Assembly (NCBI GenBank): GCA_038736355.1
Contig: JAVYML010000002.1
Coordinates: 372,001 to 436,000 of the forward strand
Source: Candidatus Hadarchaeales archaeon
GTDB taxonomy: Archaea; Hadarchaeota; Hadarchaeia; Hadarchaeales; WYZ-LMO6
DNA length: 64,000 bases
Direction: 5' to 3'
Numbering within the stretch: the stretch's first letter is position 1; every line of letters begins with the position of its first letter. Below are positions 3,700 to 15,096 of this stretch, piece by piece. The translations under genes and the position numbers were made by a program. Below the pieces are notes generated by a model that worked only from the letters and a program-made list of their open reading frames with translations, was not told the DNA's origin and did not search any database.

Positions 3700-4467
3700 T
3701 CAACGGTGGTCGAAGGAGGGTTTTCTTTTTTCGATGAAGGCCCTTACCCCTTCCACGAAATCATGGGTGCCTAGGATCTTTTCTCCGATCTCCTTTTCCA
3801 GCTTGAGCCCCTCTTCCAGCGGTCTTCCCAGGCCCAGCATCACGGCTTTTTTATCCGCTCTTATGGATCCTTGGGGATACTCACAGAGTTGTTTCGCTAT
3901 CTCCAGGGCCCTTTCCATCAGCTTCTCCCTGGGCACTACCTCGTTTACCAACCCAATCCTATAGGCCTCCCAAGCGTCAATCCTCTTACCGGTGAGAATG
4001 AGTTCCATCGCCCTTCCCAGCCCCACGATTCTGGGAAGTCTCTGGGTGAGCCCATCTATGAGGGGAACATTCCATCTCCTTTCTAAACATCCGAACTCCG
4101 CATTCTCTGAGGCGATCCTGAGGTCCGCCAGGCAGGCGATTTCCAGACCTCCCGCAAAACAATAACCGTTGATGGCAGCTATGATGGGCTTGAAGATGTC
4201 CGTTCCCCTAGTGTAACCCAAGAAACCCATCTCCTTTCCTTCGAACTCCAGTAGACTTTGGAAGTTCTTCAAATCCGCCCCGCTGCAGAAGCTCTTCTCC
4301 CCCGCACCGGTGATGATGGCCACGAAGAGCTCATCATCGTCTCTGAACCTCTGCCAGGCCTCGAAGAGCAATTTGGCAGTTTCCCCATCTATGCAGTTCA
4401 TCACTTCAGGACGGTTAATGGTGATGATGAAGATGCGGTCCCTCACTTCGGTCAGTACCTTTGGCAT
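3700..4467 (-). CDS. enoyl-CoA hydratase/isomerase family (crotonase)
   Basis: 255 residues of the crotonase superfamily, which stabilise an enolate of an acyl-CoA thioester. The two oxyanion-hole segments are CSGADL (about 61-66) and YCFAGGLE (102-109). Both glutamates that activate water in true enoyl-CoA hydratases are conserved: Glu109 in GGLE and Glu129 in CLE. Hydratase activity is therefore plausible rather than only isomerase or hydrolase activity. The C-terminal FVEGVRAFIEKRKP matches the family's C-terminal helix. It lies on the opposite strand from the CoA-transferase, HMGS-like and thiolase genes at 6.2-10 kb and could supply the hydration step of the same pathway. A TATA-like CTTAAAG lies about 24 bases before the ATG. 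Confidence 0.9.
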   Translation of the reverse strand: MPKVLTEVRDRIFIITINRPEVMNCIDGETAKLLFEAWQRFRDDDELFVAIITGAGEKSFCSGADLKNFQSLLEFEGKEMGFLGYTRGTDIFKPIIAAINGYCFAGGLEIACLADLRIASENAEFGCLERRWNVPLIDGLTQRLPRIVGLGRAMELILTGKRIDAWEAYRIGLVNEVVPREKLMERALEIAKQLCEYPQGSIRADKKAVMLGLGRPLEEGLKLEKEIGEKILGTHDFVEGVRAFIEKRKPSFDHR

Positions 4468-4496: not shown

Positions 4497-5535
4497 CTAT
4501 CCTATTCCTTCTGGGCCCACCACGGCCATCAGCAGGGTCCAATCCTCCTCACTCTTGGCGAAGACATGACAGTTGCCCAGTTTTACCCTCTTCAGGCCCG
4601 CTTCTTTTATTACCAAGTAAGCCCTGAGCATTTCCGTTAAGGAGGGACTCCTCGTTTGGGAAAGTTTGTATTCCGGGAAAAAAGCTAGGAGGGTAAAGGG
4701 GAGGTTGGGATCCACTTCTTTGATCAGCTCGGCAATTTTCCTGAGTTGCTCCTCTTCCACCCAGCCCGGAATGTAGAGGGAAAGGAGCTCCAGCACAAAA
4801 CCCCTATCCCTTATCTCGGCAGGGGTCTTCAGAATCCACTCGTTGGTGGTTCCGCACAGCTTCCTGTACGTACCCTCGTCATAGGCTTTGAGGTCCAACC
4901 AGAAAGAATCCACCCCAGCGCTCGCCAGGAGATCGAGATTGGAGGGGGTTAAACCATAACCGTTGGTCTCCAGCAGGATCCACATTTCTTCCGTGCAGGC
5001 CCCCTTTATTTTCTTCGCCGCCTCAGCATAGAATTCGGCCCTGCATAGAAGGTCCCCCCCCCGTAAAGGATACGATGTTCCTGGCAGGTCCGTAACCCTG
5101 TGAGCTGAGGATGATTTGGTCAGGCTTCAGTTTTTTGGGACAGAGGGGACCCCTTACTCCGAACCTGACGCAAGAACCGCAGTGATGGCAGAGGTCGGTG
5201 GCGTGCCACATGGTCGCCCTTTCCCTGGGCTCCCTAACCGTAACGGTGAGTTCATAGGTGGCAGCCCACTCCGCCATCTCTTCGGTGGAGGCCCAAAAAC
5301 CCTCCGGGCGCTGGGTGAAATACCAGGAATGACATTTTAGACAGGAGTGATTGCATCCACTCTGGTAGATGCTATAGTAGTCTTCTGGTCTGGAGAGTTG
5401 GGCGGAGGCTATGAGCCTGTGCCAAAGGCCCCCTTCCCTTTTCAGGGTGAGTTCACAGGCCCTCCTAGGTCCTGAGGGTGTGGGGAGAAGACAGGAGCCA
5501 GGTTTATAGCCCTGGGTGACCATTGCGCATTCCAT
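4497..5535 (-). pseudogene. radical SAM protein (glycyl-radical activase-like), interrupted by a frameshift in a C/G homopolymer
   Basis: Two overlapping frames encode one protein. The upstream part has the radical SAM motif CNHSCLKC (Cys61, 65 and 68 from the ATG at 5535), a second cysteine set at about 116, 119, 122 and 132, and then SFTGG. The frame is lost in a run of nine C (nine G on the coding strand) at 5054-5062. With eight G the reading continues smoothly as SFTGGDLLCRAEF and joins the 162-residue downstream frame with LETNGYG and LDLKAYD, giving about 345 residues. This is the architecture of PflA-like activases with an inserted cluster domain. No glycyl-radical enzyme is in the window. 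The frameshift may be a sequencing error, a real mutation or phase variation. Confidence 0.75.
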
Positions 5536-5570
5536 CGAGAAAGAGGGGGTTGCGGAATAGATATGGGGAG

Positions 5571-5712: not shown

Positions 5713-6234
5713 ATGATGCCCCTTTACGAGTTCGGTGGGAAAAGGCCCTCCATCCATCCCGGAGCCTTGGTGGCCAAGACCGCCTGCCTGGTGGGTGAGG
5801 TGGTGGTGGGGGAGGGTACGAGCATCTGGCCGGGCGCCGTCCTCAGGGGGGATCTGAACGCGGTGAGGGTGGGAAGGTTCACCAGTATTCAGGACAACTG
5901 CGTGCTCCACACCGACATGAGCGTGGAAGTCTACGTGGGTGACTACGTGACGGTGGGACATGGGGCAGTAATCCATGGGGCCTTGGTGGAAGACCATGTG
6001 TTGATAGGGATAGGCTCCATCATCCTCAACGGGGCCAAAATAGGTAGGAACTCCATCATCGCGGCGGGTTCGGTGGTGAGGGAGGGGACGGAGGTTCCCC
6101 CAGGGACGATGTTCGCCGGCGTTCCCGCCAAATTGGTAAAGGAACTGGATCAGGAGGAGCAGAGGATCAGGGCAGAGGCCGGTGCTTTGGGATATTATGA
6201 ACTGGCTAAGCAGCATCCCGAGCTCTTCAGGTGA
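5713..6234 (+). CDS. gamma-class carbonic anhydrase-like left-handed beta-helix protein
   Basis: 173 residues made almost entirely of hexapeptide repeats, the left-handed parallel beta-helix seen in trimeric gamma carbonic anhydrases. The three metal-binding histidines of the Cam/CamH type are present in LHTD and in VGHGAVIHG, so the active-site metal can be held. It lacks the acidic loop and N-terminal secretion signal of Methanosarcina Cam, so it is closer to the cytoplasmic CamH/YrdA group. A second ATG follows the first directly (5716), leaving the start uncertain by one residue. The next gene overlaps its 3' end, suggesting co-transcription with the CoA-transferase. Confidence 0.85.
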   Translation: MMPLYEFGGKRPSIHPGALVAKTACLVGEVVVGEGTSIWPGAVLRGDLNAVRVGRFTSIQDNCVLHTDMSVEVYVGDYVTVGHGAVIHGALVEDHVLIGIGSIILNGAKIGRNSIIAAGSVVREGTEVPPGTMFAGVPAKLVKELDQEEQRIRAEAGALGYYELAKQHPELFR

Positions 6235-7354
6235 GAGGACGCTCGAGGGAGTAAGGATAGTGGATCTCACCAGATATCTTCCCTTCACCACCCTGCTGGC
6301 CGATATGGGGGCGGAGGTAATCAAGGTGGAAGAACCTCGCAGAGGAGATTACGCCCGCACCCTTCCACCTTACTTTTCCGCTGTTCATAGGAACAAGCGA
6401 AGTCTCACCCTCAACCTCAACTCTCCAAAGGGAAGGGAAGTACTCCTGAAGTTGGTGGAGAGGGGGGACGTCCTCGTGGAGAACTTTAGACCTGGGGTGA
6501 TGGAGAAATGGGGATTGGACTATGATACCCTGAGCGGGAGGAACTCCAGGCTGGTCTATTGCTCTATTTCCGGCTACGGGAAGAAGGGACCTTACCGTCT
6601 TCTGTCTGGTCATGATATCAACTACCTTTCCCTCGGAGGTGTTTTGGGCCTCACTAGGGACGAGAACGGAAAACCGGTCATACCCGGAGTACAAATAGCC
6701 GATATGGGGACCTGTCTTCTGACCACGGTGGCCATCCTTTCCGCCCTCTTCCACAGGGAGAGAACTGGAAAGGGGCAATACTTGGAAATCTCTTTCTTGG
6801 GTGCCTCCCTTTTCTTCCTCACCCTTCCTTCCTCCTTACACTTGGAGGGGTGGGAGGTGGGTGAGGAGACCCTTCCCCTCCTAGGCCACTTCCCCTGTTA
6901 TGCCGTCTACAGGACCTCGGACGGAAAATACCTGAGTATCGGGTGCTTGGAGGAGGTCTTCTGGGAGAGGCTGTGTGAGGTACTTGGGAAGAGGGAATAC
7001 CTTGGTCATCAGTGGGACTTGGAAAAGAGAGAGGAGATCTTCGAGGCCTTCCAGCGGATTTTCCTGACGAGGAAAAGGGAGGAGTGGTTCAGGCTTCTGT
7101 CGGAGGCCGATGTCCCCGTTGCCCCCGTCTATTCCTTGGAAGAAGTTTTCTCGGATCCTCAGGTGAAGGAAACGGGGATGTTGGTGGAGGAAGGCGGAAG
7201 GAGGGAACTTGGTTTCCCTTTCCAATCCTCCCTCTTTTCCTACAAGCCCAGGAGGAAAGCCCCCTCCCTTGGTGAACACACGGAGGAAATCCTGAAAGAG
7301 CTTGGGTACACGGAGGAGGAGGTGGAGGAGATGAGAGCGGAGGGTGTGGTTTGA
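6197..7354 (+). CDS. CoA-transferase family III (CaiB/BaiF)
   Basis: About 386 residues of the class III CoA-transferase family, which moves CoA between carboxylic acids through an aspartyl-CoA mixed anhydride. Typical features are LEGVRIVDLTR near the N-terminus, the ADMGAEVIKVEEPRRGD nucleotide-binding stretch, NFRPGVMEKWGLDY and GYGKKGPY. The catalytic Asp lies in VQIADMGT, followed by ALFHRERTGKGQ. The start is uncertain: ATG codons at 6182 and 6197 both lie inside the end of the preceding gene, and the shorter choice fits the family N-terminus. It runs into the HMGS-like gene and thiolase on the same strand, so it may load the CoA ester they act on. The substrate is unknown. Confidence 0.85.
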   Translation: MNWLSSIPSSSGERTLEGVRIVDLTRYLPFTTLLADMGAEVIKVEEPRRGDYARTLPPYFSAVHRNKRSLTLNLNSPKGREVLLKLVERGDVLVENFRPGVMEKWGLDYDTLSGRNSRLVYCSISGYGKKGPYRLLSGHDINYLSLGGVLGLTRDENGKPVIPGVQIADMGTCLLTTVAILSALFHRERTGKGQYLEISFLGASLFFLTLPSSLHLEGWEVGEETLPLLGHFPCYAVYRTSDGKYLSIGCLEEVFWERLCEVLGKREYLGHQWDLEKREEIFEAFQRIFLTRKREEWFRLLSEADVPVAPVYSLEEVFSDPQVKETGMLVEEGGRRELGFPFQSSLFSYKPRRKAPSLGEHTEEILKELGYTEEEVEEMRAEGVV

Positions 7355-7452: not shown

Positions 7453-8886
7453 GTGGTAGGAATAACCTCCTGCGGAGTTTATCTTCCAAGGTACAGGATG
7501 GATAGGGCCGTTCTCTATGAAGCCATAGCTTCCTGGCTCAATCCCGCCGCCCTCCTTCCGGGGGAGAGAACGGTGGCTAACTGGGATGAGGACAGTCTCA
7601 CGATGGGAGTGGAGGCGGCGAGGGACTGTTTGGGTGAAGAAAGGAAAAGTATTTCCTCGGTTTACTTCGCCACCACCACTCCCCCTTTCGCCGAAAGGAT
7701 GAACGCGAGCATCCTGGCCACTGCTCTGGACTTGGAAGAGGGGGTGAGAACGGTGGATGTTACCGGATCTCCCTCCTCCGGTATGAGGGCCTTGCTCATG
7801 GCTTTCGAGGAGGCCGAAAAGGGAAAGAGGGTTTTGGTGGTGGCTTCCGACTGCAGGATGGGAAGACCGGGGAGCGTGCAGGAGGCGATGTATGGCGATG
7901 CGGCTGTTGCCCTCTTGGTGGGGGAAGAAAGAGTGGCGAAGCTGGAAGGTTCCTATTCCCTCTCCCACGATTTCCCCGATTATTGGAGGGTGGAAGGGGA
8001 GGAATTCACCCGCTCCTGGGAGGACAGGTGGATAAGGGAGGAAGGATATCTCAAGTTCATCCGTTCCTCCATCGAGGGTTTGCTGAGGGAGAAAGGTCTC
8101 ACCCCCGAGGATATTTCCAAGGTGGCTTTTCCGGCCCTTTTTCCAAGGGATCATCCACGTCTTGCCAGGGAGATGGGTTTTTCCGAGCAACAACTCCAAC
8201 CGAGTCTTTTCGAGCAGGTGGGAAACACGGGGGCCTCCTATCCCCTCCTTCTCCTGGTGGCGGCCCTGGAGGGAAGGGAGAGGGGAGAGAAGGTGGTGGT
8301 GGCAGGTTATGGGGCCGGGAGTGATTCTCTTCTCTTGACCGTCACGGGCGGAATGGGTGAGAGGAAGGTGGAAAGGGCTCTGGGCAGGAGGAAGGAACTG
8401 AGAAGCTATGAGAAGTACCTGGCTTGGAGGGAAAGCATGCCTGTGGAGAAGGGGATGAGGGGGGAAGAAATAGCCCCCACCTCTTTGTCGCTCGCTTGGA
8501 GGGAGAGGAGGGCTATCCTAGCGTTGGTGGGATCTAGGTGTAGAGCCTGCGGCACTCCCCAATACCCTCCGCAGAGGATCTGTGTGGCCTGCGGTGGAAT
8601 GGACATGGAGCCATACAGGTTCTCGGAGAGGAGGGGGAGGGTCTTCAGCTACACCGAGGACATGCTGGCTTTCTCCGTGGATAGACCCGCCATTTACGGA
8701 ATCGTGGATTTTGAGGGTGGTGGGAGATTTTGGTTCGACTTCACGGATTGTGAGGCCGGGGAGTTGAAGGTGGGAGCTCCCGTTAGGATGAGTTTCAGGA
8801 GGAAGTACCGGGATCCCGTGAGGGGAGTGATAGGATATTTCTGGAAGGCCGTACCGGAGGTGGAGGATGGGGGGAATAAAGGATAA
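7453..8886 (+). CDS. HMG-CoA synthase-like protein lacking the catalytic triad, fused to a DUF35 zinc-ribbon/OB domain
   Basis: 477 residues from a GTG start that matches the archaeal HMG-CoA synthase N-terminus (VGITSCGVYLPRYR). Residues about 1-320 have the HMGS thiolase fold, and the GNTGASYP loop is kept. The triad is gone: the catalytic Cys position is Pro107 in TGSPSSG, the His position is Pro227 in VAFPALFP, and the Glu position is Thr in FATTTPP. From about 345 there is a DUF35 domain with a zinc ribbon (Cys363, 366, 377 and 380) and an OB fold. In the archaeal mevalonate pathway HMGS, thiolase and DUF35 are separate subunits of one complex. Here two are fused and the thiolase gene follows with a 20-base overlap. 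A scaffold role is inference; HMG-CoA synthesis by this protein looks unlikely. Confidence 0.85.
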   Translation: MVGITSCGVYLPRYRMDRAVLYEAIASWLNPAALLPGERTVANWDEDSLTMGVEAARDCLGEERKSISSVYFATTTPPFAERMNASILATALDLEEGVRTVDVTGSPSSGMRALLMAFEEAEKGKRVLVVASDCRMGRPGSVQEAMYGDAAVALLVGEERVAKLEGSYSLSHDFPDYWRVEGEEFTRSWEDRWIREEGYLKFIRSSIEGLLREKGLTPEDISKVAFPALFPRDHPRLAREMGFSEQQLQPSLFEQVGNTGASYPLLLLVAALEGRERGEKVVVAGYGAGSDSLLLTVTGGMGERKVERALGRRKELRSYEKYLAWRESMPVEKGMRGEEIAPTSLSLAWRERRAILALVGSRCRACGTPQYPPQRICVACGGMDMEPYRFSERRGRVFSYTEDMLAFSVDRPAIYGIVDFEGGGRFWFDFTDCEAGELKVGAPVRMSFRRKYRDPVRGVIGYFWKAVPEVEDGGNKG

Positions 8887-10066
8887 GGTGGCCATCATAG
8901 GGATGGGATGCACTCGCTTTGGGGAGAGGTGGGACGCTGGCTATGAGGATCTCATCGTAGAAGCCTTCCAAGAGGCTTTGGAGGATGCGGGGATAGAAAA
9001 GGAAGAAATAGAGATGGCGTGGTTGGGGACCTGCTTCGATGAGGTCTCCACGGGGAAAAGTGCCTTACCCCTTTCCGTCTCCCTGAAGCTTCCCTTCATT
9101 CCCGTGACGAGGGTGGAGAACTTCTGTGCCACAGGTTCAGAGGCCCTGAGGGCAGCATGCTACGCCGTGGCTTCCGGGGCCTGTGAGGTGGCGCTGGCGC
9201 TGGGGGTTGAAAAGCTCAAGGACATAGGATATGGAGGACTTCCCGAATTCGGTTCCGGAATGGGAAGCAGGAACAGGCTCATCTTTCCGAACGTTACGGC
9301 TCCAGGGGCCTTCGCCATGATGGCGGTGAGGTACTTCGATCGTTATGGGCTGACTCCCGAAAGGGGGAAGGAAATTTTGGCCAAGATCTCGGTGAAAAGC
9401 CACAGGAACGGGGCGAGGAATCCCAAGGCCCACCTGAGGAGGGAAATAAGGGTGGAGGATGTTCTGTCCGCCCCCATCATCGCCTGGCCCCTCGGTCTCT
9501 ACGACTGCTGCGGAGTGAGTGACGGGGCGGCAGCCGCTATCGTGGTGAGGGCGGAGAAGGCCAGGGAATACAGGGAGGATCCCATTTATGTGAAGGCGAT
9601 GCAAGTGGCTACCACCTCCGGGGAGGAGCTGCTCTACCGATGGGACGGAACCCATGTGGAAACTACGGTGAGGGCGGCGAGGAGGGCCTATCAGGAGGCG
9701 GGAGTGGAGGATCCGAGAAGGGAGCTGGATCTGCTGGAAGTCCACGACTGTTTCTCCATCACGGAGCTGGTGACCTATGAGGATCTTGGGATTTCCCCCA
9801 GGGGAAAGGCGGCGGAGGATGTGGAGGCGGGTTTCTTTGAGCTAGAGGGTGAACTCCCTTGCCAGCCCGACGGAGGCTTGAAATGCTTTGGACATCCGAT
9901 AGGAGCCTCGGGTCTCAGAATGGTATACGAAATCTACAAACAACTCCAGGGGAAGGCCGGACCCAGGCAATTGAGGGATCCCAGATTGGGACTCACCCAT
10001 AACTTGGGAGGTTTCCCGGCCATGAGCGTGGTCAGTGTTAGCATTTTCGGCTTGGACAGGGGCTAG
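8867..10066 (+). CDS. thiolase (archaeal acetyl-CoA acetyltransferase / SCP2-type)
   Basis: 399 residues of the thiolase subfamily found next to HMGS and DUF35 in archaea. The nucleophilic cysteine is Cys87 in ENFCATGSEA. HDCFS and FGHPIGASG carry the other conserved active-site residues. The canonical second cysteine is replaced by THNLGG, as usual in this subfamily. It either condenses two acetyl-CoA or cleaves a 3-oxoacyl-CoA. The start overlaps the HMGS-like/DUF35 gene by 20 bases, implying translational coupling and a complex. With a CoA-transferase upstream and a crotonase on the other strand, acyl-CoA degradation is as likely as mevalonate synthesis. The gene ends just before the dnaG promoter. 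Confidence 0.88.
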   Translation: MGGIKDKVAIIGMGCTRFGERWDAGYEDLIVEAFQEALEDAGIEKEEIEMAWLGTCFDEVSTGKSALPLSVSLKLPFIPVTRVENFCATGSEALRAACYAVASGACEVALALGVEKLKDIGYGGLPEFGSGMGSRNRLIFPNVTAPGAFAMMAVRYFDRYGLTPERGKEILAKISVKSHRNGARNPKAHLRREIRVEDVLSAPIIAWPLGLYDCCGVSDGAAAAIVVRAEKAREYREDPIYVKAMQVATTSGEELLYRWDGTHVETTVRAARRAYQEAGVEDPRRELDLLEVHDCFSITELVTYEDLGISPRGKAAEDVEAGFFELEGELPCQPDGGLKCFGHPIGASGLRMVYEIYKQLQGKAGPRQLRDPRLGLTHNLGGFPAMSVVSVSIFGLDRG

Positions 10067-14936: not shown

Positions 14937-14955
14937 GTAAGAGAGAAAGAAAAAG

Positions 14956-15045
14956 GCCCCGGTAGCTCAGTAGGTAAGAGCGCGCGCTTGGTATTCCTCG
15001 TGAACGAAGAGCGCGAGGTCGCGGGTTCAATTCCCGCCCGGGGCT
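14956..15045 (+). tRNA. tRNA-Thr (anticodon GGU) with a 16-base intron
   Basis: The acceptor stem GCCCCGG/CCGGGGC, the D arm GCTC/GAGC and a T arm with GGGTTCAATTCCC fold cleanly. The anticodon stem CGCGC/GCGCG encloses 23 bases instead of seven. Removing 14994-15009 leaves TTGGTAA with anticodon GGU and an intron at the usual 37/38 position. The intron can pair in a bulge-helix-bulge-like shape (TCGT with ACGA). The discriminator base is U, which fits archaeal threonine tRNA. Confidence 0.85.
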
Positions 15046-15096
15046 TAGTCTTACACGTATTTCTCTTTAAGCTTTCAGGATTGCCAAGATTTTAGT

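What the first reader, a model, noticed from the sequence alone, without database searches (positions are those of the whole stretch)
7453..10066. HMG-CoA synthase fold without its catalytic triad, fused to DUF35 and coupled to a thiolase
By reading against archaeal HMGS, Cys, His and Glu of the active site are replaced by Pro107, Pro227 and Thr, while the fold and the DUF35 zinc cysteines are kept. The thiolase gene overlaps by 20 bases. In the archaeal mevalonate complex HMGS, DUF35 and thiolase are separate and active. Here a fused pair appears to have become a scaffold or channel for a thiolase, possibly serving acyl-CoA degradation with the CoA-transferase upstream and the crotonase at 3.7 kb.
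Basis: partly seen in the sequence, partly recalled or inferred. Interest (0 to 1): 0.68.

Follow-up and report, generated by a model that had tools for sequence, protein, structure and literature searches.

The report
Dead HMG-CoA-synthase scaffold for a thiolase
In an archaeon from an alkane-oxidising family, a protein shaped like the enzyme HMG-CoA synthase but lacking its catalytic residues is fused to a zinc adaptor and encoded with an acyl-CoA-cleaving thiolase; the same two-gene unit occurs in many bacteria and a few other archaea, so it is a real, conserved and still untested variant of a known three-part enzyme complex.

Summary
Confirmed. Window 7453-8886 encodes a 477-aa HMGS-like + DUF35 fusion; 8867-10066 encodes a PRK06157 thiolase, overlapping by 20 bases. 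Cys, His and Glu of HMGS are Pro107, Pro227 and Thr75; the DUF35 Cys4 is kept. The genome (Hadarchaeota, family WYZ-LMO6 / Ca. Cerberiarchaeaceae) has a separate intact mevalonate HMGS-thiolase-DUF35 operon. The fusion is not local: it is in all 4 sampled members of this family, none of 24 other Hadarchaeota, five other archaea, Dehalococcoidia (50-53% identity) and proteobacterial plasmids (35-41%). In 34 fusions the triad is never intact and the Cys column is highly variable, yet dN/dS is about 0.1. Among 394 archaeal genomes, the 9 with the triad-less fusion are exactly the 9 with PRK06157 above cut-off, and all have acyl-CoA dehydrogenases. Neighbours are often beta-oxidation genes. Best explanation: the fusion is the non-catalytic half of a 3-oxoacyl-CoA thiolase complex built like PhlABC, whose PhlA also lacks the triad.

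The parts
7453..8886 (+). HMGS-like + DUF35 fusion gene (477 aa, GTG start)
7453..8370 (+). HMGS-like (thiolase-superfamily fold) domain, about residues 1-306; Thr75, Pro107 and Pro227 replace Glu, Cys and His
   Evidence: best PDB fold 6esq_I
8494..8862 (+). DUF35 domain, about residues 348-470: zinc ribbon C363-C366-C377-C380 and OB fold
   Evidence: (6esq_E, E 5e-14)
8867..10066 (+). PRK06157 thiolase (399 aa); Cys87, His293, His343 present; 20-base overlap with the fusion gene
   Evidence: 628 bits, cut-off 403
6182..7354 (+). class III (CaiB-like) CoA-transferase upstream, same strand; conserved in the other genus of the family
5713..6234 (+). gamma-carbonic-anhydrase-like hexapeptide protein (PaaY/CaiE-like); conserved upstream in both genera
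3700..4467 (-). crotonase / enoyl-CoA hydratase family gene, opposite strand, weakly linked

Best explanation
The two genes make one enzyme: a 3-oxoacyl-CoA thiolase of beta-oxidation in which only the PRK06157 subunit is catalytic (Cys87, His293, His343). The HMGS-like domain has lost HMGS chemistry and serves, with the fused DUF35 adaptor, as a structural partner that holds and completes the thiolase's substrate/CoA cavity, as PhlA and PhlB do for PhlC. Shown here: the fold, the loss of the triad across the family, strong purifying selection, near-obligate pairing with the thiolase, and an acyl-CoA degradation neighbourhood in most carriers examined. Inferred: physical complex, thiolytic direction and substrate. 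Because the same genome has a classical FadA-type thiolase, the complex probably handles an unusual (branched, cyclic, aryl or otherwise bulky) 3-oxoacyl-CoA; this last point is a guess.
For: Triad absent in all 34 fusions from Hadarchaeota, Chloroflexota, other bacteria and five other archaea: Glu->Thr in 32, Cys column P/T/I/A/V/S/L/Q/F at the 91st percentile of variability, His column P/C/G/A/Y/S. HMGS-like domain dN/dS 0.107, DUF35 0.074, thiolase 0.030. The thiolase keeps its catalytic motifs and is the better conserved subunit (about 64-72% to Dehalococcoidia against about 50-52% for the fusion). In 394 archaeal genomes the 9 carriers of the triad-less fusion are exactly the 9 with PRK06157 above cut-off, adjacent in each; all 9 are among the 74 with strong acyl-CoA dehydrogenase hits. 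Neighbours: a FadB-like 3HCDH+ECH gene overlapping the fusion in G291; CoA-transferase, acyl-CoA dehydrogenase and ETF in G001; MaoC pair, two SDRs and acyl-CoA dehydrogenase in Dehalococcoidia; CoA-transferase, SDR, MaoC, aromatic dioxygenases in Proteobacteria. Precedent: PhlABC crystal structure and mutants (PMC6392133). In Hadarchaeota the pair is confined to the one family reported to have beta-oxidation (PMC10811742).
Against: No complex was modelled (single-chain prediction only) and no activity is known. PhlABC and MucABC are acyltransferases in natural-product synthesis, so acyl transfer rather than thiolysis is possible. Thr75 and several charged residues (Arg135, Asp149, Glu190) are conserved in fusions but not in HMGS, so a new binding or catalytic role for the HMGS-like domain is not excluded. 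The co-occurrence ignores shared ancestry (four families only). The genome has a FadA-type thiolase (PRK06445, 626 bits), so the pair is not needed for ordinary chains. In G138, G119 and G242 the neighbours tested are not beta-oxidation genes.
Confidence: 0.7

Rival explanations
1. The pair is a PhlABC/MucABC-like C-acyltransferase that transfers acyl groups to a non-CoA acceptor, not a degradative thiolase.
For: Same three-domain make-up; PhlA and MucA are among the nearest solved relatives by fold and sequence and also lack the HMGS Cys.
Against: Neighbours are mostly beta-oxidation genes, not biosynthetic ones; PhlC scores far below the 6esq thiolase against P0002 (92 against 211 bits); P0002 keeps the HDCF His.
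Confidence: 0.1
2. The HMGS-like domain is a substrate-binding or channelling module that receives the 3-oxoacyl-CoA (or holds CoA) in its old pocket and hands it to the thiolase, as the mevalonate complex shares one CoA site.
For: Fold is kept; Thr75 is fixed at the old Glu; in the M. thermolithotrophicus complex CoA sits at the junction of all three proteins (described).
Against: The Cys and His columns drift freely; PpATase, the nearest characterised triad-less case, is reported to lack CoA-binding residues there. No co-structure.
Confidence: 0.14
3. The HMGS-like domain catalyses another reaction with other residues, such as hydrolysis, aldol cleavage or decarboxylation.
For: Conserved Thr75, Arg135, Asp149, Glu190 and mostly conserved Cys59 are new relative to HMGS.
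Against: No conserved nucleophile at the active-site position; the characterised sister-type complex is non-catalytic at this subunit.
Confidence: 0.05
4. The fusion is a decaying copy of the mevalonate HMGS.
For: An intact HMGS exists elsewhere in the genome.
Against: Open frames and dN/dS about 0.1; a deep clade across two domains of life, 100/100 support.
Confidence: 0.01

Closest known systems
PhlABC (PpATase), 2,4-diacetylphloroglucinol acyltransferase, PDB 5M3K/5MG5 (PMC6392133)
   Same: HMGS-like subunit without Cys and Glu, DUF35 subunit, catalytic thiolase-like subunit; all three needed for activity
   Different: Three separate genes, biosynthetic C-acylation; here two subunits are fused, the thiolase is of PRK06157 type and the context is beta-oxidation
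Archaeal acetoacetyl-CoA thiolase/HMGS/DUF35 complex, PDB 6ESQ/6ET9
   Same: Best solved match for the thiolase by sequence, for the HMGS-like domain by fold, and for DUF35 by sequence
   Different: HMGS there is active (Cys114, Glu82), subunits are separate, pathway is mevalonate; this genome has that operon separately
MucABC tetramate acetyltransferase, PDB 9VBO/9VBT
   Same: HMGS-like subunit without the Cys (Glu at that position in the alignment) with a thiolase-like partner
   Different: Unfused, natural-product acetylation
BbsAB benzoylsuccinyl-CoA thiolase, PDB 7PXP
   Same: DUF35 + thiolase acting in beta-oxidation of a bulky aryl substrate
   Different: No HMGS-like partner
Annotated bacterial proteins 'OB-fold domain-containing protein' or '3-oxoacyl-ACP synthase III C-terminal domain-containing protein' next to 'acetyl-CoA acetyltransferase' (e.g. 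Variovorax, Sphingomonas, Azoarcus)
   Same: Same fusion, same adjacent thiolase, same missing triad
   Different: 35-41% identity; no characterised member was found in the papers searched
ChsH2-Ltp2 and Shy-Sal steroid side-chain complexes (PMC12329534)
   Same: DUF35 fused to another domain docks a thiolase-fold enzyme
   Different: The fused domain is a MaoC-type hydratase and the reaction is retro-aldol

Membership tests
HMG-CoA synthase | catalytic Glu-Cys-His | tested here: not met
   Thr/Pro/Pro in P0001; never intact in 34 relatives
HMG-CoA synthase | score over curated model cut-off | tested here: not met
   TIGR00748 129.8 against 353; PRK04262 187.2 against 244
HMG-CoA synthase | HMGS fold | tested here: met
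   6esq_I best match, TM 0.84
Triad-less HMGS-like/DUF35/thiolase complexes (PhlABC kind) | all three domains encoded together, HMGS-like without Cys/Glu/His, thiolase Cys kept | tested here: met
Triad-less HMGS-like/DUF35/thiolase complexes (PhlABC kind) | physical complex, catalysis by the thiolase only | not testable with these tools
   needs co-purification and mutants
Triad-less HMGS-like/DUF35/thiolase complexes (PhlABC kind) | acyltransferase to phenolic or tetramate acceptor | not testable with these tools
   gene context argues against it
DUF35 (ChsH2 type) | Cys4 zinc ribbon plus OB fold | tested here: met
   PF12172 and PF01796 over cut-off; C363/366/377/380
PRK06157 thiolase | curated model score | tested here: met
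   628 against cut-off 403
PRK06157 thiolase | nucleophilic Cys and active-site His motifs | tested here: met
   NFC87ATG, H293DCF, GH343PIG

The most novel reading that the evidence does not exclude
A widespread, uncharacterised class of beta-oxidation thiolase complex, shared between bacteria and alkane-oxidising archaea by gene transfer, in which a retired HMG-CoA synthase fused to DUF35 is an obligate part of the active-site cavity and sets specificity for unusual 3-oxoacyl-CoAs.
Probability: 0.45. Interest if true: 0.6.

Novelty: new variant of a known kind. Interest (0 to 1): 0.45.

Why it matters
It extends the thiolase/HMGS/DUF35 architecture from mevalonate and antibiotic synthesis to acyl-CoA breakdown, gives a clear case of an enzyme fold kept after its chemistry was lost, and puts a testable function on a protein pair that recurs in bacterial aromatic- and lipid-degradation clusters and in an archaeal family (Ca. 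Cerberiarchaeaceae) that oxidises alkanes.

Tried and rejected
Pseudogene or decaying paralogue: rejected (dN/dS about 0.1, deep clade). Shifted catalytic residues: no conserved alternative Cys or His at the site. Lineage-specific invention in this archaeon: rejected, bacterial and other archaeal homologues exist. A link to alkane oxidation itself: Mcr/Acr alpha is found in 3 of the 4 carriers of this family but in none of the five other archaeal carriers, so the pair follows acyl-CoA oxidation, not Acr. That fusion goes with triad loss: rejected, since two fused HMGS-DUF35 proteins keep the triad (L091, L104) and one unfused triad-less locus exists (L103). A literature search for a characterised member, including a guess at VceA/VceB, found none. 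The PNAS paper on the archaeal complex is not held, so its CoA contacts were not checked residue by residue. A survey centred on Chloroflexota was not possible.

Full report
WHAT IS THERE. The window lies in a 1.27-Mb, four-contig archaeal genome. Named relatives of the fusion place it in Hadarchaeota, beside WYZ-LMO6 and S4B3_HD70; the family was named Ca. [quoted passage not shown] The genome carries Mcr/Acr alpha matches. Gene 7453-8886 encodes an HMGS-like domain followed by DUF35; gene 8867-10066 encodes a thiolase and starts 20 bases before the fusion ends.

THE TRIAD. Against 18 archaeal HMGS with intact Glu-Cys-His, the fusion has Thr75, Pro107 and Pro227. In 34 fusions the Cys is never present; that column holds nine different residues and is more variable than 91% of the shared columns, the His column is P/C/G/A/Y/S, and Glu is Thr in 32. 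No other Cys or His in the domain clearly takes over: Cys59 (29/34) is at a helix end away from the catalytic positions in sequence, Cys134 and His234 are partial. The DUF35 cysteines are nearly invariant. The predicted structure matches 6esq_I best, then PhlA and MucA.

IT IS UNDER SELECTION. Between two species of the same genus (84% identity) dN/dS is 0.107 for the HMGS-like part, 0.074 for DUF35 and 0.030 for the thiolase. A working HMGS, thiolase and DUF35 operon lies elsewhere (C3:83750-86333).

WHERE ELSE. All four sampled members of the family have the fusion and 24 other Hadarchaeota do not. Homologues: Dehalococcoidia and other Chloroflexota at about 50-53%, single Desulfobacterales and Deltaproteobacteria, plasmids of Variovorax, Sphingomonas, Niveispirillum, Azoarcus, Novosphingobium, Rhodococcus and others. 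Among 394 archaeal genomes five more carry the triad-less fusion. The nine carriers are exactly the nine genomes with PRK06157 above its cut-off, with the two genes adjacent; G242 has one extra PRK06157 copy without a fusion beside it. All nine have strong acyl-CoA dehydrogenase hits, as do 74 of 394. These coincidences are not independent events: four families are involved.

HISTORY. A tree of the HMGS domain alone makes the triad-less fusions one clade (100/100). Just outside are an unfused triad-less locus (L103: HMGS-like, DUF35 and thiolase as three genes; 98/95) and a PhlA-like protein of another Hadarchaeon (L045, with Cys, Gly, Gln at the Glu, Cys, His positions; 100/95). So the triad was most simply lost before the fusion. 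Two fusions with intact triads (L091, L104) fall among HMGS and are separate fusion events. Hadarchaeal copies group with bacterial ones (99/97), away from the other archaeal copies, which suggests transfer; direction is not resolved. Some branches are long, so the exact order outside the clade is less sure than the clade itself.

CONTEXT. In the window a CaiB-type CoA-transferase and a hexapeptide protein precede the pair. In the other genus (G001) the order is hexapeptide, CoA-transferase, acyl-CoA dehydrogenase, a protein that looks like MarC by eye, fusion, thiolase, with ETF genes and a second thiolase nearby. In G291 a FadB-like gene overlaps the fusion. In Dehalococcoidia the thiolase is followed by two MaoC genes, two SDRs and an acyl-CoA dehydrogenase. 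Proteobacterial copies lie with CoA-transferases, SDRs, MaoC, crotonases and aromatic dioxygenases. In G138, G119 and G242 the close neighbours tested are not of this kind.

MECHANISM. Shown: thiolase motifs intact, HMGS motifs lost, conserved pairing, mostly degradative context. From the literature: in PhlABC the HMGS-like PhlA lacks Cys and Glu, PhlC alone contributes to catalysis, and a functional enzyme is obtained only from the whole operon (PMC6392133); DUF35 holds such complexes together (PMC12329534). Inferred: the fusion is the non-catalytic half of a 3-oxoacyl-CoA thiolase. The genome's FadA-type thiolase (PRK06445) suggests that this one serves unusual substrates. Channelling is possible but untested.

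VERDICT. Observation confirmed; interpretation right in substance, but the case is neither local nor without precedent. New variant of a known kind.

Noticed in passing
L045 (G013:C148) and G010:C38: Other Hadarchaeota carry an unfused PhlA-like HMGS homologue with Cys, Gly, Gln at the Glu, Cys, His positions (checked in L045), as in PhlA, with a DUF35 match nearby; possibly a PhlABC-type acyltransferase in archaea.
   Followed up: partly
L104:4493-6013 (G138:C96) and L091 (G052): HMGS-DUF35 fusions with intact Glu-Cys-His: independent fusions of a probably active HMGS.
   Followed up: partly
L103:3567-6289 (G138:C30): Unfused triad-less HMGS-like, DUF35 and thiolase genes in a row, sister to the fusion clade; looks like the pre-fusion state.
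   Followed up: yes
L002 (G000:C2:225275-228457): A second thiolase + DUF35 pair without an HMGS-like partner, next to a small Fe-S protein gene that looks HdrC-like by eye; G001 has a similar thiolase with CCG-domain genes about 10 kb from its fusion.
   Followed up: no
window 4497-5570, - strand: A gene that looks like a radical-SAM activase is split between two frames near a run of nine C (5054-5062): a frameshift by sequencing error or a broken gene.
   Followed up: partly
window 14955-15046, + strand: ARAGORN reports a tRNA of undetermined isotype with a four-base anticodon (ggta), perhaps an intron-containing gene or a false call.
   Followed up: no
L102:4394-6018 (G242:C27): A PRK06157 thiolase next to a 130-aa ORF (the size of a stand-alone DUF35, not tested) and no HMGS-like gene beside it.
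   Followed up: no
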